From positions 1 through 31,226 of the IMG/VR virus record IMGVR_UViG_3300027759_000295: a stretch of DNA of 31,226 nt; one strand, written 5' to 3'. The position numbers and the translations under genes were made by a program. This DNA is from a virus. The notes beneath the pieces were generated by a model. It saw nothing but the letters and a program-made list of their open reading frames with translations, was not told the DNA's origin and searched no databases. Positions within the stretch are counted from its first letter, which is position 1. Every line of letters starts with the position of its first letter. This document shows, piece after piece, positions 9,740-25,269 of the stretch.

Positions 9740-12700
9740 ATGAGCGGTGGTGGTAAGAGCGGCACAACAACCCAACAGGTGACGATCCCGCCAGACGTTT
9801 TGGCGAGATACAATTCCGTCAACGCTCGTGCGGAAAACGTTGCTCAACAGGGCTTCCAACAATATGGAAATACCCCCGACGCGTTTGTTGCGCCGCTCAA
9901 CCCCACTCAGACGGCGGGTATTGCCAACACCAATGCGGCAGCCACTGGTTCTCAGCCATACTTCGGTGCCGCCACTGGGTTGACAATGTCCGGCATTCAG
10001 GACGTTGGTCCCCTGACGCAAGGGCAGATTGGGTATTACCAGAACCCGTTTACGCAGTCCGTCGTCAACCCCACATTGCAAGCCCTTCGGCAACAGCAGG
10101 GTCAGGACCAAAATGCACTGCTTGGTAAACAAGCGATGTCCGGGGCTTTTGGTGGCGATCGCGCTGGACTGGAGCGGGCCAACTTGTACCGCCAACAGGA
10201 ACTAGGCACTGCTCAGGCCATTGCACCGCTGTACCAGCAGGGGTACCAACAGGCGGTTACTACAGCCGCCGGTCAGCAGGGCGTTCAAGCCGCAGACTTG
10301 GCTCGTCGTATGCAGGGCGGTCAGCAGATCGCCGGTATTGGGCAAGCGGTGCAGGGAGCTGGTCTTCAGGGAGCACAGGCTCAGCTCGCAGCGGGCCAGA
10401 CCCAGCAGCAGACTGAACAGGCGGGCAAACAGGCTCTTTATAACCAGTTCCTGCAGCAGCAAGGTTACCCATTTCAGGTCGCGCAGTTCTTGGCGAACAT
10501 CGCCATGGGTACTGGTTCGCTGTCCGGATCGACTACTACAACGGAAGCCCCGACTGGGTTCTTTTCGGACGAGCGCGACAAGACCAACGTCGATTATCTC
10601 GGCAAGGGTCAGTACGCTTACGACTACAAGTCGGACGTTGACCGGGCGGAGAAGGATGGCACTCCAATGCCTCCCAAGCGCGTCGGCCCCATGGCTCAAG
10701 ATATCGAAAAAGAACAGCCGGGACTGGTTGCCGACATCAACGGCCACAAGGTAGTCCGTGGCCCAGACAGCGAAGGTGGTGCGGTCATTCCAGAGCGCGC
10801 TGGCCTTGGATTCGCTATTGGCGGTAGTGCGGGATTTGACCAAGACATGATCAAGCAGATCATGGCTAATCAGGCCGGGATGTATTCCGGGATGTATGGT
10901 CAAGAGGGGGCTCCTCGGGGCCTTAAAGGCACACCGGGGGTTGGTGGCGGTCGAGTGCCAACGGCTAATCTGCCGGTTGGGAAAATCGCCACGGCGGGTT
11001 CTGTACCGCAACAACAATCGTCGGGACTTTCGCAAGCAGCGCAGACCGGCCAGAACATTTCGAACCTCCTCCAAATGGGGTCGAAGGCAAAGGAAGCACT
11101 TACTTCTAACCCGTCTAAGCCTTCCCTACCCGACCGGACGATTGGCGAGGGGGATGCTAGGCATGTTGTTAACCCCGGCGAAGCCACTGGTTACGCGAAA
11201 GAAACCGTCGTCGGCGGAAAAATCGACGGCGAAGAAGCCGAACGCATGATTTCGGCCCGTGGTGGTCGTATTCACAAATTGTATGGTGGTCCGGCGGACA
11301 TTGCTTCTCCCCAAGGCCTATACTCGCCGATTGGCTCGGGAATTGATATCCCGGACGAGAAGAACAAATACGAGCTTAAAACGGCAGCAAACGCTGGTAA
11401 GATCGACCCCAACCCGGGCATCAAGGACCTGTCCTCTGCGGTAACCACCGCCAAGAACACGTACGGCACGTACAAAATGGCCGACAAGGCCAAGAACTTC
11501 ATTGCGGGACTGGGCGAAAAGGACGCAGCCGCTACCACTGAGGGTCTTGGTGCGGGTACCCCCGGTGTAGAAGCAGCTAAGGATGTTCCCCTTCCACCGG
11601 CTCGCCCGGAGGGTCTTGGTGCTGGGGCCACAGACACTGCGGCTGCTGGTACTCCAGCTGCTGAAGGTCTTGCCGGTGGTACAGAAGCCGCTACTGCGGA
11701 AGCTGCAGCCACTGCAGCAGCTGAAGAAGCTGCCACCACAGCTGCTACTGAAGCCGCCACCACTGCCGCCGCTGAAGCCGCCGCTACCACTGCAGCCGAA
11801 GTTGCCGCCGCAGCCGCCGCTGAAGAAGCCGCCGCCGCTGCAGCAATGATTTTGCTTGTGAAACGTGGTGGTCGCACCAATAGCCCCACTCGCAAGCACT
11901 TCAAGGCGGGTGGTCTTGGTCTGGCTGACATCGTTGACCCAGAGGCGGTAAAAGCCAGCGACCCGGGCCTTGGGGCGCTGGTTCGCGGAGAAGACGTTCC
12001 CGTAGAAGAGAAGCCAAAAGCTCTGCAGCTGGCTGAAGTCAAGCCAACTGGTCTGTCGGACGAAACGCGCGCTCCGCCACCCACAGCTAACTTCGGTACG
12101 TCGCTTAGCCGTGTGTTCAAGGAAGAGGGCGGGCTTAACGAGCGCGACACGAACGGCCAGCCGTCGCTGTACGGCATTAATGCCAAATATCACCCCGACT
12201 TCTTTAAGAACCCGACACGAGAGGCTGCGGCTAAAATCTACAAGTCGGACTATTGGGATGCGATCGGTGCGGATCAAATGCCCGCGCCACTCGCCCATGT
12301 GGCGTTCGACACCGCAGTTATTGCCGGTCCTAAAAAGGCCAAAGACCTCATTGCGGCTTCGGGCGGGGATCCGGCCAAGCTGTTGGCCCTGCGTCAGGAT
12401 TTCCAAAATTCCCTGATCGAGGCTAACCCCGGCAAGTACGGCGACTACAGGAAAACTTGGAACAACCGCATTGCTAACCTGTCCGACGACATCGCCAAAA
12501 TGTCCGAAGGCAAAGACATTAATTTGGGTGGGGCGAGGCGGGCAACAGCACCCCCGTCGGCAGGTGAAACGGCACCGGTCCGTGTTACCACTGGAACGAG
12601 CGTTGCAACCCCGGGCCTTGGCGGTGCTGGCCAAGGCAATCTCGATGCATATGCCGCACCTTTCCGCAACACCATTGGCAAATTGGTGGGCGACAACGAG

Positions 12701-14110
12701 GCCCTGAAGAGCGAGAATTTCTGGGTCCCCATGCTGGCGGGTATCGGGTCGATGCTGGCGTCGAACCGAATCACTCTAGGCGGTGCGATCGGCGAAGGCT
12801 TGGTCGGTGGTACGGCGGCATATACCGGTCTGCAGAAGCAGCAAGCCGACATTGGTAGGATCAAGGCGGACACTGAGAAAGTGTTCACCGACATGGTCGA
12901 CAGCAGCTTCAAGACCGTCAATGGTGTCACTTACATCCGTTACCGCAAGCCCGACGGTACATTCGACTGGATGATGTACGGCGACTATCTGGGTATGCCA
13001 GTTAAACCCCCGGTTGATCCCCGCTACGAATCGGTCGTAAACCAACTGTCCAAGTATGGTGTTACCCCCGGTACCCCGGGTGCCGCCCAAGCCGTTGTGA
13101 ACGCCGGGGAGGCCAATCGTGGCGGCGCGGGTACACCAGTAGCTGGTGGCACCACGACTGGCGCGGTGACGGCCAAGCCAGCCACGGGAGCGGCCACGAC
13201 TAGTGCGGTTGAGCCAGTCAAGCCAGCAACGGGTGCGGCTGAACCAGCCAAGCCAGCCGTTGTTTCTACTGTTCCCACGGCGGTGGGTCTTTCTCCTGAG
13301 CTTATTGCACAGGCCAAAGATGCCACTAAGCGGTACACTTATGCGGGTGAAGTAGAACGCACTGCTGCAAAAGACCCCAAGAACGACTACTTTAATATGC
13401 AGCAGGGTCGTGCTACGGGTGCTCAGTCCCAGATGCAGCAGATCGTTCCTCTCATGGGCGCGTTTGCATCACTTCCAAAGGACAAGAGCATTGCGGCTTC
13501 GGGCCGTTTGCAGGAGTTCGCGCAGCCGATCATTGGTACTCTTTCTAACTTGGCCGCAATGGCTGGCAGACCGGATCTTGTTATTAACCCCGAGATCCTT
13601 ACATCTCAAAACGAAGTTGAAAAGCTGGTTAACCAGTTGCAGCAGAGCCGACTGGACGCTTCGCAATTGAGGGCGGTCGAAGCGTTCAAGGCAATGGCCC
13701 AAGGCGTTCCTAGCCTTATGACCAGTCCGGGCGGTCAAGGGGCGCTGATGGCGCAGCTCATGACCAACGCTAGGCGCGAAATCGACAAGGACAAGTTCTT
13801 TGCCGACTGGAAAAAAGCCGGTGTTGGCGACAACATGGGTATGACCGATTTTGCGGCGTTGACTGGTCGCGAAGCCAATCGAGCATTTGACAACACATTC
13901 AAGGAAGAGTTCTACGCTCGCGACCGCAAATCGATCGAGAACACTTTCAAGGACGTGATTAAGGAAATTAAGAGCCCGACCACCGGCCAACCCATAACAG
14001 TTGCTGAATACTTGGCGAGGAGCGGTGCCAAAATCACTCCTGACCAGAAAAAAGCTATTACTGCGAAGTATGGCCCCAACATTCTTGGTTACTACGGCAT
14101 TTCGGAATAG
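9740..14110 (+). CDS. Large internal virion (ejection) protein with S74-like motif and GH108-like muramidase domain
   Basis: 1456 residues. Residues 1-260 are Gln/Ala/Gly-rich helices (e.g. NPFTQSVVNPTLQALRQQQG). At 276-281 SDERDK keeps the Ser-x4-Lys pattern of intramolecular-chaperone (peptidase S74) domains, followed by GPMAQDIEKEQPGLV. An alanine-rich low-complexity stretch covers about 629-703. A GH108-type glycan hydrolase follows at about 785-905: FKEEGGLNERDTNG (candidate catalytic Glu796, in the EGG triplet), then YWDAIGADQMP and HVAFDTAVIAGPKKA. The C-terminal third is helical with Pro/Ala-rich linkers. It probably enters the cell envelope with the DNA and opens peptidoglycan during infection. 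It is followed 8 nt later by another ejection protein. Confidence 0.72.
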   Translation: MSGGGKSGTTTQQVTIPPDVLARYNSVNARAENVAQQGFQQYGNTPDAFVAPLNPTQTAGIANTNAAATGSQPYFGAATGLTMSGIQDVGPLTQGQIGYYQNPFTQSVVNPTLQALRQQQGQDQNALLGKQAMSGAFGGDRAGLERANLYRQQELGTAQAIAPLYQQGYQQAVTTAAGQQGVQAADLARRMQGGQQIAGIGQAVQGAGLQGAQAQLAAGQTQQQTEQAGKQALYNQFLQQQGYPFQVAQFLANIAMGTGSLSGSTTTTEAPTGFFSDERDKTNVDYLGKGQYAYDYKSDVDRAEKDGTPMPPKRVGPMAQDIEKEQPGLVADINGHKVVRGPDSEGGAVIPERAGLGFAIGGSAGFDQDMIKQIMANQAGMYSGMYGQEGAPRGLKGTPGVGGGRVPTANLPVGKIATAGSVPQQQSSGLSQAAQTGQNISNLLQMGSKAKEALTSNPSKPSLPDRTIGEGDARHVVNPGEATGYAKETVVGGKIDGEEAERMISARGGRIHKLYGGPADIASPQGLYSPIGSGIDIPDEKNKYELKTAANAGKIDPNPGIKDLSSAVTTAKNTYGTYKMADKAKNFIAGLGEKDAAATTEGLGAGTPGVEAAKDVPLPPARPEGLGAGATDTAAAGTPAAEGLAGGTEAATAEAAATAAAEEAATTAATEAATTAAAEAAATTAAEVAAAAAAEEAAAAAAMILLVKRGGRTNSPTRKHFKAGGLGLADIVDPEAVKASDPGLGALVRGEDVPVEEKPKALQLAEVKPTGLSDETRAPPPTANFGTSLSRVFKEEGGLNERDTNGQPSLYGINAKYHPDFFKNPTREAAAKIYKSDYWDAIGADQMPAPLAHVAFDTAVIAGPKKAKDLIAASGGDPAKLLALRQDFQNSLIEANPGKYGDYRKTWNNRIANLSDDIAKMSEGKDINLGGARRATAPPSAGETAPVRVTTGTSVATPGLGGAGQGNLDAYAAPFRNTIGKLVGDNEALKSENFWVPMLAGIGSMLASNRITLGGAIGEGLVGGTAAYTGLQKQQADIGRIKADTEKVFTDMVDSSFKTVNGVTYIRYRKPDGTFDWMMYGDYLGMPVKPPVDPRYESVVNQLSKYGVTPGTPGAAQAVVNAGEANRGGAGTPVAGGTTTGAVTAKPATGAATTSAVEPVKPATGAAEPAKPAVVSTVPTAVGLSPELIAQAKDATKRYTYAGEVERTAAKDPKNDYFNMQQGRATGAQSQMQQIVPLMGAFASLPKDKSIAASGRLQEFAQPIIGTLSNLAAMAGRPDLVINPEILTSQNEVEKLVNQLQQSRLDASQLRAVEAFKAMAQGVPSLMTSPGGQGALMAQLMTNARREIDKDKFFADWKKAGVGDNMGMTDFAALTGREANRAFDNTFKEEFYARDRKSIENTFKDVIKEIKSPTTGQPITVAEYLARSGAKITPDQKKAITAKYGPNILGYYGISE
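11626..11848 (+). repeat. Alanine-coding low-complexity repeat inside the ejection protein gene
   Basis: Imperfect repeats of GCT/GCC/GCA, GAA and ACC codons encode an Ala/Glu/Thr tract (about residues 629-703) with no more complex residues. It separates the S74-like part from the muramidase part and is probably a flexible or helical spacer. It also produces long spurious open frames on the opposite strand. Confidence 0.7.
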
Positions 14111-18534: not shown

Positions 18535-18716
18535 TTCTTTACCCTTTTCGACCTGTATAGTGTGTTGGCCCGAACCGTTACGTGGCCCTCGCTTCTTCGC
18601 CATTTTTCTGCGGTCTTTCTCATTTGCTCGATTTTGCCGATCGGGACCCATACGGCGACGAGCTTAAACCCTCGCTCCTTTTGAGTTTCTACGTATCTTT
18701 TCATTCGTTCAGACAT
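18531..18716 (-). CDS. Small basic protein, possible DNA-binding or antitoxin-like
   Basis: 61 residues from ATG 18716 (MSERMKRYVETQKERGF), with RBS GGAGAAG six nucleotides upstream. The first 22 codons' region overlaps the helicase gene's end by 8 nt. The sequence RYVETQKERGFKLVAVWVPI resembles the MazE-like/CopG-like small proteins with a Y-x-x-x-x-x-x-G-x-x-x-V-x-V-W-V-P core, followed by a basic helical tail (KWRR, RSKRVKK). No toxin partner is evident next to it. It is coupled to the DUF6378-like gene (ATGA). Function uncertain. Confidence 0.45.
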   Translation of the reverse strand: MSERMKRYVETQKERGFKLVAVWVPIGKIEQMRKTAEKWRRSEGHVTVRANTLYRSKRVKK

Positions 18717-20070
18717 TACTCTTCTCCATAACGGTCTTGACCAAGTCACTCTTGCTCTGGAGAGCTTTGATGATTTTGGATTCTAGCGGACTGCCCGCCA
18801 TATCGTAGTAAATGACTTGGTCGGCGTTTTGCCCGTGGCGGTGGTTGCGGTCTTCGGCTTGTGTGCGGTCGATAAGGCTGTAAGTGTTCTCGACGAAGAT
18901 CGTGGTGGAGCATGGCTGATTGGCGGTGCCAAGCAAAGTCAGTCCTTCTTTCGCCGTTGACGTCTGCGCAACGAGCACCCGGCGGTCGTCGTCGGAGTTA
19001 AACGCCCGCACGATCTCCCGCACGTCGTTGGGCTTCATACCGCCACGAATGACCAGCGGGTTAAAGTCTTTGAGCGATTTTTCCAACGTGTTAACAGTGT
19101 GCTGGTAGTGGGCGAACACAATGGCTTTTCCCATAATGTCTTCCATGGCGTCCACGACTGCACTGATCTTGGGATTTTTACCCTCGCAGAAATCGATCAC
19201 TGCACCCTTGTCGTCGATCATGAACCCGGATGTCACTTGCTGCATCTTCATCAGTGCGGTGATTACCATCTGAGCGGTCACCTCCTGCCCCTCGTCCATC
19301 GCAAGGAATCGATCTTTGTAAATCTGGTTATACGCCAGCTTTTGCTTAGCATTCAGCTCGTAACCAAGGACTTGGTACACCTTGGGCGGCAGCGACGACA
19401 TCCACTGCTTCTTTTTGGCTCTAAATGAGCAGCACTCCAGCAGATCCCGTAGTTCGTCTTCTCTTTGCGTCCCAATGATCTGCTTGCCCATCCACCCGCC
19501 CATGACACCGTAGCGGTTGCGAAACGTGTACGGCGATCGGTGCGAACCGTGCTTGTTAATGGCCCGCAATTGCGACCACAGGTCGACCACGTTGTTGGCG
19601 AGTGGCGTTCCCGTCATCACCCGTTTGACCGTGGCAAGGTCGAACAGGAAAACGATGGCCTTCGATGTCTTGGCTTTGAAGTTCTTAATACGATGGCTCT
19701 CGTCGCATACGCCGTAAAAGTTACGCTTCTTTAACGCGCCATAGATGGTGTCGAATGCGGTCGATATGACCTTCTCGTAATTGACCACCCACATTCCCAC
19801 TTTCGGCGGCGGCTCGGGGTATATGGACACCTCGTATTCGAAGCCCATTTTCTCAGCCTCGGCCTTCCAATTGGCCCGCAGGTTATTGGGGCAAATCACG
19901 AAAAGAAGGTCAACGACACCCTTCTTCTCCATGTTCGTGAACTCCGCCATCACCGTGCCGGTCTTGCCCATGCCGGGGTCCATGAAAAACGCGTAACCAA
20001 CGCTCTCGTCGGCCTTTTTAAGCGCTTCTGCCTGAACCGGCAGTGGAGACATCTTAAACGGCCAGCTCAT
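18709..20070 (-). CDS. SNF2/DEAH-type helicase
   Basis: 453 residues from ATG 20070; the frame is longer upstream but this ATG has RBS GGAGG and overlaps the previous stop (ATGA). Motifs in order: Q-rich start, Walker A DPGMGKTGT (about 31-39), motif Ia CPNNLRANWKAE, motif II CDESHRIKN (D123, E124; DESH instead of DEAH), motif III TGTPLANN (153-160), then C-terminal KAIVFAHYQHTVNTLE, STAKEGLTLL and RTQAEDRNHRHGQ (about 402-414). This is the two-lobed SNF2 set. It would translocate on DNA using ATP in phage replication or recombination. There is no zinc finger or nuclease extension. It is directly downstream of datZ. Confidence 0.88.
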   Translation of the reverse strand: MSWPFKMSPLPVQAEALKKADESVGYAFFMDPGMGKTGTVMAEFTNMEKKGVVDLLFVICPNNLRANWKAEAEKMGFEYEVSIYPEPPPKVGMWVVNYEKVISTAFDTIYGALKKRNFYGVCDESHRIKNFKAKTSKAIVFLFDLATVKRVMTGTPLANNVVDLWSQLRAINKHGSHRSPYTFRNRYGVMGGWMGKQIIGTQREDELRDLLECCSFRAKKKQWMSSLPPKVYQVLGYELNAKQKLAYNQIYKDRFLAMDEGQEVTAQMVITALMKMQQVTSGFMIDDKGAVIDFCEGKNPKISAVVDAMEDIMGKAIVFAHYQHTVNTLEKSLKDFNPLVIRGGMKPNDVREIVRAFNSDDDRRVLVAQTSTAKEGLTLLGTANQPCSTTIFVENTYSLIDRTQAEDRNHRHGQNADQVIYYDMAGSPLESKIIKALQSKSDLVKTVMEKSNV

Positions 20071-20654
20071 ATGGTGTCCTCCAACAGTATTGGCAACGCC
20101 GCTTGGTCCGTGCAAAAATACGAGAAGTGGGTGGCCCACACATCTTCCAGCATGGCGGCGTTCGCCGGTAGCTTTTGCCAACGGGACTTGAGCCTCTTCT
20201 TGGCTTCGTCGCGAACGATGTTGGCCCAAGTGTTACCCGACAGCAGCTCCTCCACCAGATAGCTGACCTCTTCAATAGCGTCGGCCACCGACACGATCGC
20301 CTTGACGTCGTGAGGGGCCGACGAGATGGCATTGACGACATCCAAGCCATATTTATCGGTCATCACCTTGTCGATGCGCTCCTTGGCCCGCTCCTTGTCC
20401 CACGCGACACGCTTTATAGGGCCGGGGATGTCGCCCGTGACCGTCTCGTCGGCGTCGTGGTAGAGAGCGTATCGCATCAGCTCCGCGTAATCGCCTTGCC
20501 AGCCGATCAGGCGGGCAACTTGGTCCGCGTAAAGCGTCACGTAGTAAGAGTGTTCGGCCAGATTCTGCTGGCGGTTCCGGCGCAGGATCACCCAGCGCGG
20601 GACATGTGCCATATCGCGCCAAGATGGTGCAAAGGGTTTATTCGGACTGCGCAT
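20067..20654 (-). CDS. datZ: DatZ-like HD-domain dATP triphosphohydrolase
   Basis: 195 residues from ATG 20654 (MRSPNKPFAPSW, RBS GGGGAGG). HD-domain residues are plain: QNLAEHSYYV (H35), ALYHDADETVTGDIPGPIK (H66-D67, E70), and a later Asp in VSVADAIEE. Relatives are YfbR nucleotidases and DatZ, the enzyme of Z-genome phages that breaks down dATP so that A cannot enter phage DNA. PRWVILRR places W21 and I23 where, from memory, the S-2L DatZ structure has the residues packing on adenine. Next to MazZ- and PurZ-like genes the DatZ role is much more likely than a general nucleotidase. It overlaps the mazZ-like gene by 17 nt and the helicase by 4 nt. Confidence 0.83.
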   Translation of the reverse strand: MRSPNKPFAPSWRDMAHVPRWVILRRNRQQNLAEHSYYVTLYADQVARLIGWQGDYAELMRYALYHDADETVTGDIPGPIKRVAWDKERAKERIDKVMTDKYGLDVVNAISSAPHDVKAIVSVADAIEEVSYLVEELLSGNTWANIVRDEAKKRLKSRWQKLPANAAMLEDVWATHFSYFCTDQAALPILLEDTI

Positions 20655-20928
20655 GCTCTTTGCCTCCCCTAGCAACGAGGCCAGATCGATCGTCTCCACC
20701 GGAGGCCAAGATGTCGTAGATGAACATGCAGAAGTTTGCAACGTCGACGCATTCATTCATCACCTCATCTGTCGGCTCGTACTTAAGCGAGATTTCGAGT
20801 TCCCGCACTTCAGCTTGCAGCTTTTCGCGCAGGTACTCCAGCGGCAGGTGTCGCCACCCGCCGTATCCGTCTCGCTTTTGAAGCTTGCGCTCCATGGATT
20901 CGGCGAAAGATCTGACCTCGCCACGCAT
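20638..20928 (-). CDS. mazZ: MazZ-like (d)GTP/dATP pyrophosphohydrolase
   Basis: 96 residues. It is an all-alpha NTP-pyrophosphohydrolase of the MazG superfamily. The metal-binding motif ExxE...ExxD is visible: AEVRELE (E40, E43) and NECVDVANF (E59, D62), with the family segment DGYGGWRHLPLEYLREKL before it. In Z-genome phages MazZ turns (d)GTP into (d)GMP, the substrate of PurZ. The gene lies directly behind the purZ-like gene with a TAATG stop-start overlap, and before the datZ-like gene. Standing alone, the sequence could be any dATP/dGTP pyrophosphohydrolase; context makes MazZ likely. Length is close to that of known short forms. Confidence 0.8.
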   Translation of the reverse strand: MRGEVRSFAESMERKLQKRDGYGGWRHLPLEYLREKLQAEVRELEISLKYEPTDEVMNECVDVANFCMFIYDILASGGDDRSGLVARGGKEHAQSE

Positions 20929-22028
20929 TAACGGATCGCCTTGTTAAGCTTCTCGCGGGCGTCGTTAACGCTCATGACATCGGTGGTGCAGGGGCCAAAC
21001 GAGCACAGCACTTCAGGAGAGGTCCAGCTCCACTTGTGAACGTTGTCCATCTTAACGAGGATCTCGTCCAGATCGTAGCCACTCAACAGGTAATCGCAGA
21101 ACCCCAGATGCACGATGTTGGGGCGAAGACGCGATATCGAATCGCGATACTGCATCGACGAGAAGTTAAATATGCGACGGATGCGCTTCGTTACCGTGGT
21201 ACGTTCGGGTTCAATGTTCGGGAAGTCAAGCCACGAAAGCTCCTTCTGGTCGGGGTAAACGCCACCCGAGAACCCGATCGTCTTGCCATCGTCGTCCACG
21301 ATGTTACCAACGCGGATAGGGAAGGTGCGGGCCGTCATCAACGTCTTGTACAAGTAGGACGGGTGAATACCCGCGTCCGACAGCGACTGGCTGACCGACA
21401 CTTCACGTGATGTGCAGTGCGGGTGAAAACCGTTATTGACCGACAGGCCCATGCCCTGTGGCGTTTCCACCACAACAGCGAACCCCATCATCATGGCTTC
21501 GTTAAGCTCCATGGCATGAACGCGCAAACCCATCGCGTTAAGCTCGACCGCCATGTCCTTCGCAGTGACGCCTTCGCGCATGATCTTGCGGGCAAGAGCG
21601 CGACCAACACCCTTTTGTGTCGACGCAATCTGCGTGGCACCCGACGTCTTGGACTTTTCGTAGTCCTTGTCTTCCTGAGTGATTACTGCCGCATTGGGGT
21701 GAATCACTACCCGGATGGGTTCAACGCCCATGTCGCGCAATTCGTCGCGCAACACGTCAATGTCGATAATCGCACCAGCATTCAGATAAATGCTAGTTTC
21801 GGGGCGCATGACCGCCATGGTAGGCAGGTGGAAAGTGATGAACTTGCGGCCATCCGGCAAAACGGTAGTGTGGCCCGCATTAGGGGCGGCGTTCGTCGTG
21901 CAGATAACTGTCCGCCAGTTGACTTCGGCGCGCTCGCACTGGTAAGCGGCAGCGAGACCCTTGCCCGTGCTACCAAATTGTCCGTCGATCACGACCGACG
22001 CACTGCCGTGTTTGATGAAGTTAGACAT
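20928..22028 (-). CDS. purZ: PurZ-like N6-succino-2-amino-2'-deoxyadenylate synthetase
   Basis: 366 residues, adenylosuccinate synthetase fold. The P-loop region reads VVIDGQFGSTGKG (14-24): GSTGKG replaces GDEGKG, so the PurA catalytic Asp position is Ser20, a change known for PurZ enzymes. Other family parts are TTNAAPNAGHTTV (H53), TQIASTQKGVGRALARKIMR and DAGIHPSYLYKTLMTARTFP, and the length is short compared with about 430 for bacterial PurA. It should couple dGMP and aspartate with ATP hydrolysis to make the precursor of diaminopurine deoxynucleotide; host PurB and kinases finish the route. RBS AAGGAATT precedes ATG 22028; the stop overlaps mazZ. Confidence 0.9.
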   Translation of the reverse strand: MSNFIKHGSASVVIDGQFGSTGKGLAAAYQCERAEVNWRTVICTTNAAPNAGHTTVLPDGRKFITFHLPTMAVMRPETSIYLNAGAIIDIDVLRDELRDMGVEPIRVVIHPNAAVITQEDKDYEKSKTSGATQIASTQKGVGRALARKIMREGVTAKDMAVELNAMGLRVHAMELNEAMMMGFAVVVETPQGMGLSVNNGFHPHCTSREVSVSQSLSDAGIHPSYLYKTLMTARTFPIRVGNIVDDDGKTIGFSGGVYPDQKELSWLDFPNIEPERTTVTKRIRRIFNFSSMQYRDSISRLRPNIVHLGFCDYLLSGYDLDEILVKMDNVHKWSWTSPEVLCSFGPCTTDVMSVNDAREKLNKAIR

Positions 22029-22029
22029 C

Positions 22030-22443
22030 TTAATTCCTTACGGGGTTGTTGAGAAAGTCTTCTATCTGCCACCCAATGCCACGCTTCCTGTGGGGCAGTC
22101 TGTCTAGTCTGCACATCACTCGGGTGGCTTCAGGCACTGTGCGCAGCATGCACATCTCTTTTTCGTCTTCGATTGCGACCCAGACCTCTACACGGAGACC
22201 AGACTCTTCCATCACTTTCATGGTCTGGCGTTGCAGCGCCGTGGTGTTTACTTTGACCATGCCGTCTATGCCCATCTCTCCTCTCTTCACTTCGACAAGG
22301 ATCACGTCGTACCCCGGAACCTTGATAATGAGGTCCGGTATACCACTCATGAAATGGTGGGACATCTTCATGGCGAAGACGTCCGTACGCAGCTTTCGCG
22401 CGTCGTCCATTATCTGATTTTGTATTTTAAGCTCGCTTGTCAT
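22030..22443 (-). CDS. VRR-NUC-type nuclease
   Basis: 137 residues from ATG 22443 (MTSELKIQNQIM); an in-frame TTG at 22455 is an alternative start. The PD-(D/E)XK nuclease core of VRR-NUC proteins is visible: SHHFMSGIPDLIIKVPG (PD) and DVILVEVKRGEMG (ExK), followed by QRQTMKVMEESG, the family's helix with conserved Q. It would cut branched or single-strand DNA during replication or recombination. The C-terminal 40 residues are basic. It lies between the polymerase and the purZ-like gene, 1 nt before the latter. Small VRR-NUC genes are common in phage replication blocks. Confidence 0.8.
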   Translation of the reverse strand: MTSELKIQNQIMDDARKLRTDVFAMKMSHHFMSGIPDLIIKVPGYDVILVEVKRGEMGIDGMVKVNTTALQRQTMKVMEESGLRVEVWVAIEDEKEMCMLRTVPEATRVMCRLDRLPHRKRGIGWQIEDFLNNPVRN

Positions 22444-22463
22444 CTGCGCATCCAATCATGTCG

Positions 22464-22487: not shown

Positions 22488-24272
22488 CTATATCATGCCC
22501 TTTGCGGCCATGATCTTCTTCCACGAGTCTTCGCCGTAGGACGCCCATCCCCAGTCGGGACCCGAATCTTCCTCGATCTCGATTGGTACGCGGATCTCCG
22601 GGAAATCGCACATGATTTCCAGAGCATCACGATAAGCGCGCTCGCGATCGGGCGTGTACTGGATGTCCAAGCTGTCGTGAACGTTGTTGAGCATGTCGAT
22701 GCCACCCACCGACCGGCACATCTCGTCGATGCGAACCATGGACACCTTGATCATATCCGCATTCGAACACTGCAGCAGCCGATTGACCGCCTTGTATTCG
22801 AACCCGGGCGCTTGGAGACGAGAGCGTCGTCCAAGAATGGACCGCACGAACCCCCGGACTTTGAGGACGTTTGCGGCTTCTGCCTGAAGCACCTTGATTT
22901 CCGGCATGGACTTGAAGTATTGGTTCACGATCGCCATGGCTTCGTCCATCGGCTTGCCCAGCATCGACGCTGCCTTCTTCGCCCCCGCACCGGTCAGCAG
23001 CGCTTGGTTAAGGCGCTTGCCCGATTGGCGGTCAATGTTCGCCGCTAACGCGACGGCGGTGTGGGCGTCGACGGATGGCTGCTTGGTGTATCCATCCACG
23101 AGGACCTTGCACCCACTATAGTGGGCGAGGAGACGGGGTTCGCACTGGCTGTAGTCCGCCGACCCCCATATCATGCCCTCGTCGGGCAAGAAAATGGATC
23201 TAAAGAGCACACCGACGTCCTCGTCGCGCTTGGGCACCTGCTGCAAGTTGGGATTGGAAGACGATAGTCTCCCGGTTACCGTGCCGAACTCGTCGCCACG
23301 AAGCTGGTTAAACGATGCGTGTACGCGTCCCTTGTATAGGTGCCGGTCGATCATTGGGTCAATGAACGCTTCGAGCATACGCTTGGCTTTGCGCACAGTG
23401 ATCACCTTGCGGCCAATCTCCGTGGTGCGCAGATATTCTTCCGGAAAAGATGGCTTTCCAGTCGGGGTCAGGGGCCACCCACTTTCGCCGTGCTTTTCGT
23501 GAAGCTTGAAGATCTGGAGGGGCGAATTAACATTGATCTCTTCGCCCAGCGTCTCTTGGGCCTTGGCCAGCGTCTCGCCCATAACTTCGCGGAGCCTATG
23601 GACGCGATTAACATCGATCTTGATGCCGCGCATGGTCATGCGGTTCAGAACCGGTATGACTTTGCACTCGATCTCGTGCACCTTATTAAGGTCCTGCTCT
23701 TCTATGTGCTTGGTCTGCTCCACCCACAGCTGCCAAGTGGTGGTGCCATCACCGACGGCGTATTCGACCGCAACAGGGTCGTTCGCTGGGAGACGCCAAT
23801 ACTCGCCCATGTAGTTGCGGCCAAAGCTCTCTTGGAAGAACTCCTCGATATGGGCCTTGATTTCCGTAGCCTTCTTGGACTGGACACCGGCTTCGTCGGC
23901 GCAGCTTTCGAGCGAAAATGACCGGCGAAATTCGTCGAGCAAAGCGGCGTTGATCATAGTGTCTTCGAACGAACCGTTCAGCTCGATGCCTTCGGCGTGA
24001 AGGAATGCTAGATCGAATGCCAGATTATGGCCAATCCAGTGGCGCGGCTTGTCTTGGTGGGACAGAACCATTTCGCGAACGCGATCGGCGTCGTAATTGG
24101 GGCCAGATGCATGCCGCACTGGTAAATAAAACGTGTCACCGGCAAGCGGACCAAATGTGAACACGTACCCCACAATGCGGTTCTTCTTCCAATCGAGCCC
24201 GTTCGTCTCGACGTCCACTACCACAATGGCTGCTTTGGATATACGGGTGGACACAATATCAATCAACGACAT
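22488..24272 (-). CDS. dpoZ: Family A DNA polymerase with 3'-5' exonuclease (DpoZ type)
   Basis: 594 residues. Exonuclease: ExoI VVVDVETNGL (D20, E22), ExoII GHNLAFDLAFL (N83, D87), ExoIII YAVGDGTTTW (Y171, D175). Polymerase: RLSSSNPNLQQVPKR (thumb/palm), motif A ADYSQCEPRLL (D373), motif B RQSGKRLNQALLTGAG (R415, K419), motif C NNVHDSLDIQ (H532, D533). There is no 5'-nuclease domain, as in phage enzymes. Deviations from the Pol I norm are Q423 for the Phe and T427 for the Tyr of the O-helix, and Ser after D533 instead of Glu. In Z-genome phages such a polymerase, mainly by its exonuclease, favours Z over A. The neighbouring purZ-like genes support the DpoZ name. Confidence 0.87.
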   Translation of the reverse strand: MSLIDIVSTRISKAAIVVVDVETNGLDWKKNRIVGYVFTFGPLAGDTFYLPVRHASGPNYDADRVREMVLSHQDKPRHWIGHNLAFDLAFLHAEGIELNGSFEDTMINAALLDEFRRSFSLESCADEAGVQSKKATEIKAHIEEFFQESFGRNYMGEYWRLPANDPVAVEYAVGDGTTTWQLWVEQTKHIEEQDLNKVHEIECKVIPVLNRMTMRGIKIDVNRVHRLREVMGETLAKAQETLGEEINVNSPLQIFKLHEKHGESGWPLTPTGKPSFPEEYLRTTEIGRKVITVRKAKRMLEAFIDPMIDRHLYKGRVHASFNQLRGDEFGTVTGRLSSSNPNLQQVPKRDEDVGVLFRSIFLPDEGMIWGSADYSQCEPRLLAHYSGCKVLVDGYTKQPSVDAHTAVALAANIDRQSGKRLNQALLTGAGAKKAASMLGKPMDEAMAIVNQYFKSMPEIKVLQAEAANVLKVRGFVRSILGRRSRLQAPGFEYKAVNRLLQCSNADMIKVSMVRIDEMCRSVGGIDMLNNVHDSLDIQYTPDRERAYRDALEIMCDFPEIRVPIEIEEDSGPDWGWASYGEDSWKKIMAAKGMI

Positions 24273-24381: not shown

Positions 24382-25206
24382 TTAGTACTCTGTCGTGGCA
24401 ACGATGGAGTCTCCACCACCGTGATCAGAGTCTTCGGCCATACCGTAAAGGCCAGTTTCGCGAACGCGAGAGTGGATGGCCTTGCAACCAGTGTACACTT
24501 CGAAGTCATCATTGATGCCAGCGAAGCTGAACGACGGTATGAGGTGCTTCTTGCCATTCTTGGCGGTGGTGGCGGTCGATGTGAGCTTGTATTTCAAAGC
24601 AAACGAGGGACCACCCGCTCCACGAAACGCGATGTTGTCGCGCATCTTGCCACCAACCGGGAAGGCCGACTTGCTGAAGGTGAACACACCAAACGCATGG
24701 GGGCCAACTTCGGGCAACACGAACAGGAAGTTCAGGGTCTCCTTGCCCGGAGGCGGTGGGTTACCCTTGGGCCAATGGGTAAGCTTGCTTTCGGCAATCG
24801 AACCCTTAGTGTCCCAGACTTCCTTACCGGACTGGGTCACGACCTCGAACTTGGTGTTCGAAGGCTCCCAGACCCAGACGTCCTTTTCGTTCTTGCGACC
24901 GCGAGCCAATGGGGCACCATTGTCACCCGACGGGTCCCAAAGGGTGTATCCGGTCTCCGCATAAACCGGCACCACGGTGACCTCGTCGCCAAGATCGCCC
25001 AGCTCCTTGTGGTAGAAGTTACCGGGCTTGGCTTCGCCGTTCGTAACTGGCGAACTGGTCGGATGCATGAGCGAGATGCGGGGCAGGGTGGCGGAAGAGC
25101 GATCAACGCCTTCCATACCCAGTCCGGCGTCTTCGCGCATGAAGTCCGGGAGGACGACCACCGCGTTATCTTCACTGACTTTAGCGACTGCTGTTGACTT
25201 TGCCAT
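24382..25206 (-). CDS. Putative single-stranded DNA-binding protein
   Basis: 274 residues from ATG 25206 (MAKSTAVAKVSED), RBS AAGAGAG. The layout (disordered start, LPRISLMHPTSSPVTNGEAK, GNFYHKELGDLGDEVTVVPV, WDPSGDNGAPLARGRK, a long beta region FAGINDDFEVYTG, and an acidic tail AEDSDHGGGDS) matches phage proteins usually placed in replication blocks beside a family A polymerase. I regard them as gp2.5-like ssDNA-binding proteins. The acidic C-terminus fits such a role, since SSB tails contact partner proteins. No OB-fold motif can be proven by eye. It is the last gene before the terminator at 24325. Function is therefore inferred. Confidence 0.55.
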   Translation of the reverse strand: MAKSTAVAKVSEDNAVVVLPDFMREDAGLGMEGVDRSSATLPRISLMHPTSSPVTNGEAKPGNFYHKELGDLGDEVTVVPVYAETGYTLWDPSGDNGAPLARGRKNEKDVWVWEPSNTKFEVVTQSGKEVWDTKGSIAESKLTHWPKGNPPPPGKETLNFLFVLPEVGPHAFGVFTFSKSAFPVGGKMRDNIAFRGAGGPSFALKYKLTSTATTAKNGKKHLIPSFSFAGINDDFEVYTGCKAIHSRVRETGLYGMAEDSDHGGGDSIVATTEY

Positions 25207-25236
25207 TGTGCAACTCTCTTTGCTTTTCAACGTGAC

Positions 25237-25269
25237 TTGGGGGACGTTTACAACCCGATCCGCCCCCAA
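25237..25269. other. Weak inverted repeat upstream of the ssb-like gene
   Basis: TTGGGGG (25237-25243) and CCCCCAA (25263-25269) form a 7-bp stem with a 19-nt loop in the 69-nt gap before ATG 25206. No T-run follows on the - strand, so it is not a clear terminator; it might act on the leader of this mRNA. Confidence 0.35.

What the first reader, a model, noticed from the sequence alone, without database searches (positions are those of the whole stretch)
22620..23160. DpoZ with unusual O-helix and motif C residues
R415 and K419 align with the nucleotide-binding Arg and Lys of motif B, but the Phe (Klenow F762) position is Gln423 and the Tyr (Y766) position is Thr427. Motif A is DYSQCEPR instead of DYSQIELR, and motif C is VHDS instead of VHDE. 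These sites contact the incoming nucleotide or template base, so they may adapt the enzyme to Z:T pairs with three hydrogen bonds.
Basis: partly seen in the sequence, partly recalled or inferred. Interest (0 to 1): 0.68.

Follow-up and report, generated by a model that had tools for sequence, protein, structure and literature searches.

The report
Z-phage polymerase with altered O-helix
This virus carries genes predicted to replace adenine with 2-aminoadenine in its DNA, and its DNA polymerase has two changes in the helix that grips the incoming nucleotide, changes that recur in nearly all such polymerases found here and almost never in relatives without those genes, so they are good candidates for how the enzyme tells the two bases apart.

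Summary
The residue assignments are correct. The ORF at 22488-24272 (-) is a 594-aa family A DNA polymerase with intact exonuclease residues, beside purZ, mazZ-like and datZ-like genes. R415, K419, Q423 and T427 align with Klenow R754, K758, F762 and Y766; motif A is DYSQCEPR and motif C is VHDS.

I compared 91 dereplicated polymerases linked to purZ with 56 from records without it. Motif A and motif C do not track purZ: close purZ-less relatives share them. Q423 marks the window's subclade and occurs in one purZ-less relative. T427 does track purZ: Thr, Ser or Phe in 87% versus 0%.

Both sites lie on helix O and are known fidelity sites in other family A polymerases. The polymerase lacks the phiVC8 DpoZ insertions and groups with neither characterised DpoZ clade. 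Most likely, a relaxed helix-O clamp makes incorporation depend on base-pair strength: three-bonded Z:T passes while two-bonded A:T backtracks to the exonuclease. This is inferred and untested. Exceptions exist: ten purZ-linked polymerases keep Tyr, and the independent contrasts are few.

The parts
22488..24272 (-). Family A DNA polymerase with 3'-5' exonuclease domain, 594 aa (candidate DpoZ)
   Evidence: Pfam and PHROG matches; Klenow and 7pbk matches; AlphaFold pLDDT 92.8
23748..24215 (-). Exonuclease catalytic residues D20, E22, D87, Y171, D175 (DEDDy), span of codons
   Evidence: Invariant in 49 aligned relatives
23133..23156 (-). Motif A, D373-R380, DYSQCEPR (Klenow DYSQIELR 705-712); catalytic D and E710-equivalent E378 kept
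   Evidence: same or similar in purZ-less relatives
23028..23030 (-). R415 = Klenow R754, helix O
23016..23018 (-). K419 = Klenow K758, helix O
   Evidence: Invariant in 49 relatives
23013..23015 (-). R420 = Klenow A759 / Taq T664: the column most strongly associated with purZ
   Evidence: Q/R in 95% of 91 purZ+ versus 2% of 56 purZ- polymerases, rank 1 of 523 columns
23004..23006 (-). Q423 = Klenow F762; marks the window's subclade
   Evidence: also in purZ-less L007/L326
22992..22994 (-). T427 = Klenow Y766, loss of the conserved tyrosine
   Evidence: T/S/F in 87% versus 0%, rank 2 of 523 columns
22671..22682 (-). Motif C V531-S534, VHDS (Klenow VHDE 880-883)
   Evidence: Ser/Ala also in purZ-less relatives
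20928..22028 (-). purZ-like 2-aminoadenylosuccinate synthetase with the PurZ loop DGQFGSTGKG (Ser20)
   Evidence: PHROG 1211 E 1.9e-61; Ser in all 233 PurZ aligned
20638..20928 (-). mazZ-like gene (MazG-type nucleotide pyrophosphohydrolase), by homology and synteny
   Evidence: Homologous to the annotated OspP_OH pyrophosphohydrolase; no Pfam match of its own
20067..20756 (-). datZ-like HD-domain dATP triphosphohydrolase
   Evidence: Pfam YfbR-like E 3.6e-17; PHROG 7076 'dATP triphosphohydrolase' E 6.3e-21
22030..22455 (-). Endonuclease-like gene between polymerase and purZ (PHROG 93)
   Evidence: a putative nuclease sits between polymerase and purZ in OspP_OH too
18709..20229 (-). SNF2-type helicase that ends the syntenic block
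   Evidence: Pfam SNF2-rel_dom E 4e-21; same order in L001-L006 and OspP_OH
24382..25269 (-). Pam3 gp34-like protein upstream of the polymerase, part of the conserved neighbourhood
   Evidence: Pfam PF23977 E 2e-22; conserved in L001-L003 and L006-L008

Best explanation
This is the replicative family A polymerase of a phage predicted to build its DNA with 2-aminoadenine (Z). It belongs to a large PolA clade linked to purZ that is distinct from the two characterised DpoZ types. Its hallmark is a modified helix O: a basic residue right after the catalytic lysine (R420, Klenow A759) and loss of the conserved tyrosine at the helix end (T427, Klenow Y766). Shown here: both sites are the best predictors, over the whole protein, of whether a polymerase lies in a phage with purZ. 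Taken from the literature: both sites control fidelity in other family A enzymes, through the fingers clamp. Inferred: in the Z-phage enzyme these changes loosen the induced-fit clamp, so a nucleotide stays only if its own pairing energy holds it. Z:T and G:C (three hydrogen bonds) are extended; A:T (two) backtracks and is removed by the intact exonuclease. DatZ-type dATP removal works alongside.
For: (1) Column scan of 523 columns: 759 Q/R 95% versus 2% and 766 T/S/F 87% versus 0% rank first and second (consistent). (2) Independent contrasts go 5-6 with and 0 against for 759, and 5 with and 0 against for 766 T/S/F. (3) The sites change both ways: purZ-less lineages nested near Thr-bearing ones have Thr at 759 and Leu or Asn at 766 (L326, L399, L439). 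(4) Wayne-like and phiVC8-like DpoZ carry R/Q at 759 and F at 766 by a different route. [quoted passage not shown] prokaryotic Pol I has Ala or Thr (PMC4591814). (6) Y766 is universally conserved, blocks the insertion site and pairs with E710; its loss perturbs the closed state, and Y766S opens the active site (PMC4882331; PMC3121766). (7) Full exonuclease and the purZ/mazZ/datZ block are present. (8) phiVC8 DpoZ selectivity was attributed to backtracking and proofreading (PMC8599892).
Against: Ten dereplicated purZ-linked polymerases keep Tyr766, seven of them in this clade, six of those with datZ also found. L181 has R759 without a detected purZ. There are only seven supported independent contrasts, so p is 0.03-0.2. 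A single origin of Thr is not rejected (AU p 0.35). Y766F, the state in characterised DpoZ, behaves like wild type in simulation (PMC4882331). No activity is measured for any enzyme of this clade. Zebrafish pol nu has Arg at the 759 site but does not show the human enzyme's T-for-G misincorporation (PMC4591814).
Confidence: 0.45

Rival explanations
1. Ancestry, not adaptation: helix-O residues mark PolA lineages that happen to carry purZ, and selectivity for Z comes from other features (exonuclease, insertions, the DatZ-controlled dNTP pool).
For: purZ and the residues are both clustered on the tree. The phiVC8-like and window clades may be one group (AU p 0.82) and Thr may have arisen once. 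PMC8599892 concluded that no single residue explains phiVC8 DpoZ specificity.
Against: Other columns share the same tree, yet 759 and 766 rank first and second. Motif A and C columns, equally clade-marking, show no net association. purZ-less lineages nested among purZ-linked ones lack both states. R/Q and loss of Tyr also occur in the remote Wayne-like clade.
Confidence: 0.3
2. The helix-O changes serve to use Z in the template or to move along stiffer Z-DNA (three bonds at every pair), not to choose between dZTP and dATP.
For: Loss of Tyr766 alters stacking on the templating base (PMC4882331). The basic residue at the 759 site in pol nu supports lesion bypass (PMC4591814), i.e. tolerance of odd templates.
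Against: Z on the template shows the same minor-groove group as G, which ordinary polymerases read. DpoZ of phiVC8 and SH-Ab 15497 favours dZTP by 1-2 orders of magnitude (PMC8599892).
Confidence: 0.15
3. Direct contact as first proposed: Q423/T427 and motif A/C side chains recognise the Z:T pair.
For: The positions lie in the active site in all family A structures.
Against: 762 varies among Q, M and L within purZ-linked enzymes, and Q occurs without purZ. Motif A and C states are common without purZ. Across purZ-linked lineages 766 is filled by different residues (T, F, S).
Confidence: 0.08

Closest known systems
phiVC8-like DpoZ (vibriophage phiVC8, PDB 7pbk; Acinetobacter phage SH-Ab 15497)
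   Same: Family A polymerase with active exonuclease motifs beside purZ, datZ and mazZ; R/Q at 759, non-Tyr at 766, non-Phe at 762; same fold, Foldseek TM 0.81.
   Different: Window enzyme lacks helix-O insertion 2, insertion 3 and the exonuclease insertion 117-127. It has Q/T at 762/766 instead of L/F and R instead of Q at 759. About 26% identity.
Wayne-like DpoZ (Arthrobacter phage Wayne group, Gordonia phage Ghobes)
   Same: purZ-linked PolA; R at 759; Tyr766 replaced by Phe in four of the five examined.
   Different: Far away on the tree. Phe kept at 762; dutZ instead of datZ/mazZ; purZ0 loop GGQFGSEAKG.
Ochrobactrum phage vB_OspP_OH DNA polymerase I
   Same: Closest isolate (33% identity), same gene order polymerase-nuclease-purZ-pyrophosphohydrolase-nucleotidase-helicase; R at 759, non-Tyr at 766.
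   Different: M762/S766 instead of Q/T. Not characterised in the held literature.
Human/zebrafish DNA polymerase nu (POLN) and Klenow Y766S / Bst Y714S mutators
   Same: Basic residue at the 759 site (pol nu) or loss of Tyr at 766 (mutators) in helix O, with altered fidelity (PMC4591814, PMC3121766, PMC4882331; PDB 3hpo).
   Different: Not linked to modified DNA; pol nu has no proofreading, whereas the window enzyme keeps a full exonuclease site.

Membership tests
Family A DNA polymerase (PolA) | DNA_pol_A domain with catalytic Asp in motifs A and C and Arg/Lys of helix O | tested here: met
   Pfam E 4.2e-54; D373, D533, K419 invariant in 49 relatives, R415 in 45 of 49; Klenow fold, TM 0.84
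Family A DNA polymerase (PolA) | DEDDy 3'-5' exonuclease residues | tested here: met
   D20, E22, D87, Y171, D175 invariant
phiVC8-like DpoZ | Insertions 2 and 3 in the fingers | tested here: not met
   ASYSGQP and the 19-residue insertion of phiVC8 have no counterpart
phiVC8-like DpoZ | Leu at 762 and Phe at 766 equivalents | tested here: not met
   Q423 and T427
phiVC8-like DpoZ | Groups with phiVC8 DpoZ on a tree | tested here: inconclusive
   Separate subclade with support 100, but union of both is not rejected, AU p 0.82
Wayne-like DpoZ (DpoZ-1) | Groups with Wayne/Ghobes polymerases; purZ0 | tested here: not met
   Distant branch; PurZ loop DGQFGSTGKG, not the purZ0 form
DpoZ in the broad sense (polymerase of a Z-phage) | Encoded beside purZ with datZ/mazZ | tested here: met
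   synteny with OspP_OH and L001-L006
DpoZ in the broad sense (polymerase of a Z-phage) | Prefers dZTP over dATP | not testable with these tools
   Needs enzyme assay

The most novel reading that the evidence does not exclude
A two-site helix-O switch (a basic or Gln residue at Klenow position 759 plus loss of Tyr766) is the shared, repeatedly evolved determinant by which purZ-phage family A polymerases reject adenine. The window's clade would be a third, uncharacterised type that uses Arg/Thr.
Probability: 0.25. Interest if true: 0.85.

Novelty: new variant of a known kind. Interest (0 to 1): 0.6.

Why it matters
Where the preference for Z over A resides in DpoZ is an open question; the 2021 structure paper found no single residue and listed only Tyr-to-Phe at 766 as shared by both DpoZ clades. 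This survey supplies a large extra clade, a second shared site (759) that paper does not mention, and natural controls (purZ-less relatives with the same motifs A and C but canonical helix O). The question becomes a pair of point mutants in one small enzyme. It would also guide engineering of polymerases for Z-DNA.

Tried and rejected
Motif A and motif C as Z signatures: rejected, because purZ-less close relatives share them and they show no net association in independent contrasts. Q423 as a Z signature: weak; present in purZ-less L007/L326, while Leu or Met is common in purZ-linked enzymes. Thr-bearing loci without purZ (L025, L044, L048, L051, L059, L060, L069, L076, L410): five are unresolved fragments of 6-11 kb (L048 shares its protein with purZ-bearing L049/L050); purZ was found in the whole records of L025, L044, L076 and L410. 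A genome-contig scan found no relative. A claim that Thr766 arose at least twice in this clade was dropped, because one origin is not rejected. A claim that the clade is surely separate from the phiVC8-like one was dropped after the AU test. phiJL001 PolA could not be fetched. Two key pol nu papers and Pezo 2021 are not in the held library, so prior mention of position 759 in DpoZ cannot be excluded.

Full report
What is there. The window is a 31,226-base virus record from IMG/VR, probably a fragment. The finding lies in a 594-aa ORF at 22488-24272 on the minus strand. It matches family A DNA polymerase and its 3'-5' exonuclease domain and aligns end to end with Klenow fragment and phiVC8 DpoZ 7pbk. 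Downstream on the same strand follow an endonuclease-like gene, purZ, a mazZ-like gene, a datZ-like gene and an SNF2-type helicase. Ochrobactrum phage vB_OspP_OH, the closest isolate, has the corresponding block: polymerase, putative nuclease, adenylosuccinate synthetase, pyrophosphohydrolase, 5'-nucleotidase and helicase. The PurZ has Ser in the DGQFGSTGKG loop, like all 233 PurZ sequences aligned. So a 2-aminoadenine (Z) pathway is a well-founded prediction; that the DNA really contains Z is not shown.

The stated residues are right. R415, K419, Q423 and T427 fall on Klenow R754, K758, F762 and Y766; motif A is DYSQCEPR and motif C VHDS. K419 is invariant, so the register cannot slip. The exonuclease residues D20, E22, D87, Y171 and D175 are invariant in 49 relatives. 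An AlphaFold model has mean pLDDT 92.8, with one helix from 415 to 426, and its best structural matches are Klenow, phiVC8 DpoZ and Bst Pol I.

Survey. I scanned viral contigs with polymerase and PurZ alignments, took named phages, and checked purZ at the level of whole records for polymerases that lacked it in the fetched stretch. In one search nothing rang, so its 15 records rest on the same model that rang. Before dereplication at 80%, 118 purZ-linked polymerases carried at 766: Thr 94, Phe 11, Tyr 9, Ser 2, Asn 2. After dereplication: purZ-linked Thr 63, Phe 15, Tyr 10, Asn 2, Ser 2; purZ-less Tyr 49, Leu 1, Asn 1, Thr 0. A further purZ-less record, L439, has Asn.

Which residues track purZ. 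In a scan of 523 well-filled columns over 91 purZ-linked and 56 purZ-less polymerases, the best column is Klenow A759, which is R420 in the window: Gln or Arg in 95% versus 2%. The second is Y766, T427 in the window: Phe, Ser or Thr in 87% versus 0%. A mutual-information ranking on a slightly smaller set gives the same top two of 566, with 762 at rank 48, 883 at 71, 709 at 96 and 711 at 484. The residue sets were chosen from the same data, so the percentages are descriptive; the ranking among columns, which all share one tree, is the control. Independent contrasts on a tree built without helix-O columns go 5-6 with and 0 against for 759, 5 with and 0 against for 766 T/S/F, 2-3 with and 0 against for 762 Q/M, and show no trend for 883, 711 or 709. 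With seven supported contrasts the sign-test p is 0.03-0.2, so this is suggestive, not proof.

Natural controls. L205, L212, L214, L217 and L199 are purZ-less records of 41-66 kb whose polymerases lie inside the window's clade. They share motif A (DYSQCEPR or DYSQAEPR, with one DHSQAEPR) and HDS/HDA in motif C, but keep Tyr at 766 and lack the basic residue at 759. Conversely L326/L007, L399/L074 and L439 lack purZ; L326 and L399 sit beside Thr-bearing polymerases on the tree, and all three have Thr at 759 with Leu or Asn at 766.

Exceptions. Ten dereplicated purZ-linked polymerases keep Tyr766. Seven are in the window's clade (L101, L102, L113, L179, L180, L183, L185), and all seven have R759; one is Wayne-like (L425); two are host-like PolA on 111-161 kb contigs with neither change (L122, L125). 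Three other purZ-linked enzymes lack R/Q/K at 759 (L158, L335, L195). L181 has R759 without a detected purZ in 70 kb. No single residue is therefore necessary.

Placement. The clade holding the window has 82 rows and SH-aLRT 100, apart from phiVC8-like and Wayne-like DpoZ. An AU test does not reject joining it with the phiVC8-like group (p 0.82), so a shared origin on the PurZ side, as the two-group scheme of PMC12884076 would have it, stays possible. The window enzyme lacks phiVC8 insertions 2 and 3 and the exonuclease insertion 117-127. It is a Z-phage PolA by neighbourhood but not a phiVC8-like DpoZ by its defining insertions.

Mechanism. PMC8599892 reports that phiVC8 DpoZ prefers dZTP and proposes backtracking into the exonuclease as the reason; it states that Tyr-to-Phe at 766 is the only mutation shared by the two DpoZ clades. 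A text search of the paper found no mention of the residue at 759. In pol nu, a Lys or Arg in helix O at a place where prokaryotic Pol I has Ala or Thr supports low fidelity and lesion bypass (PMC4591814); that this is the 759 site rests on its description there and on my knowledge of the sequences. Loss of Tyr766 perturbs the closed state, and Y766S opens the active site (PMC4882331; PMC3121766). From my own knowledge, Taq T664R, the same site as 759, is a low-fidelity mutant (Suzuki 1997). Z presents the same minor-groove amino group as G, so accepting Z is easy and rejecting A is the hard part. I infer that a looser helix-O clamp shifts selection to base-pair strength, with the exonuclease removing A and DatZ lowering dATP. 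Shown: sequence, neighbourhood, association, fold. Inferred: looser clamp, Z preference, division of labour.

Verdict. The polymerase is a new variant of a known kind, with a sharper helix-O signature than the finding named. The functional claim is testable with point mutants at residues 420 and 427.

Noticed in passing
L122 and L125 (contigs of 111 and 161 kb): Large contigs carry purZ several kb from a host-like PolA with neither helix-O change and no datZ or mazZ nearby; their Z-selecting polymerase, if any, may be another enzyme.
   Followed up: no
L007/L326 (52.8 kb record) and L399/L074, L439: purZ-less phages whose polymerases sit beside Thr-bearing purZ-linked ones and have Leu or Asn at the Tyr766 site; they may have lost the Z pathway.
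   Followed up: partly
L179:12410-13852: One open frame matches both PurZ and the MazZ profile, suggesting a PurZ-MazZ fusion.
   Followed up: no
L425 (Streptomyces phage Galactica) 17832-19217: A PurB-like adenylosuccinate lyase is encoded near purZ0 in a phage whose PolA keeps Tyr766.
   Followed up: no
L177 (Bacillus phage vB_BpsS-140): purZ is present but no gene annotated as PolA lies within 10 kb; a DnaG primase and a putative repair protein are nearby.
   Followed up: no
window 20638-20756: The mazZ-like ORF and the longest datZ-like ORF overlap by 119 bases in different frames, so the true datZ start is probably an internal codon.
   Followed up: no
window 9740-14110: A 1456-aa protein matches an endolysin PHROG and a DNA-ejection protein PHROG.
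   Followed up: no
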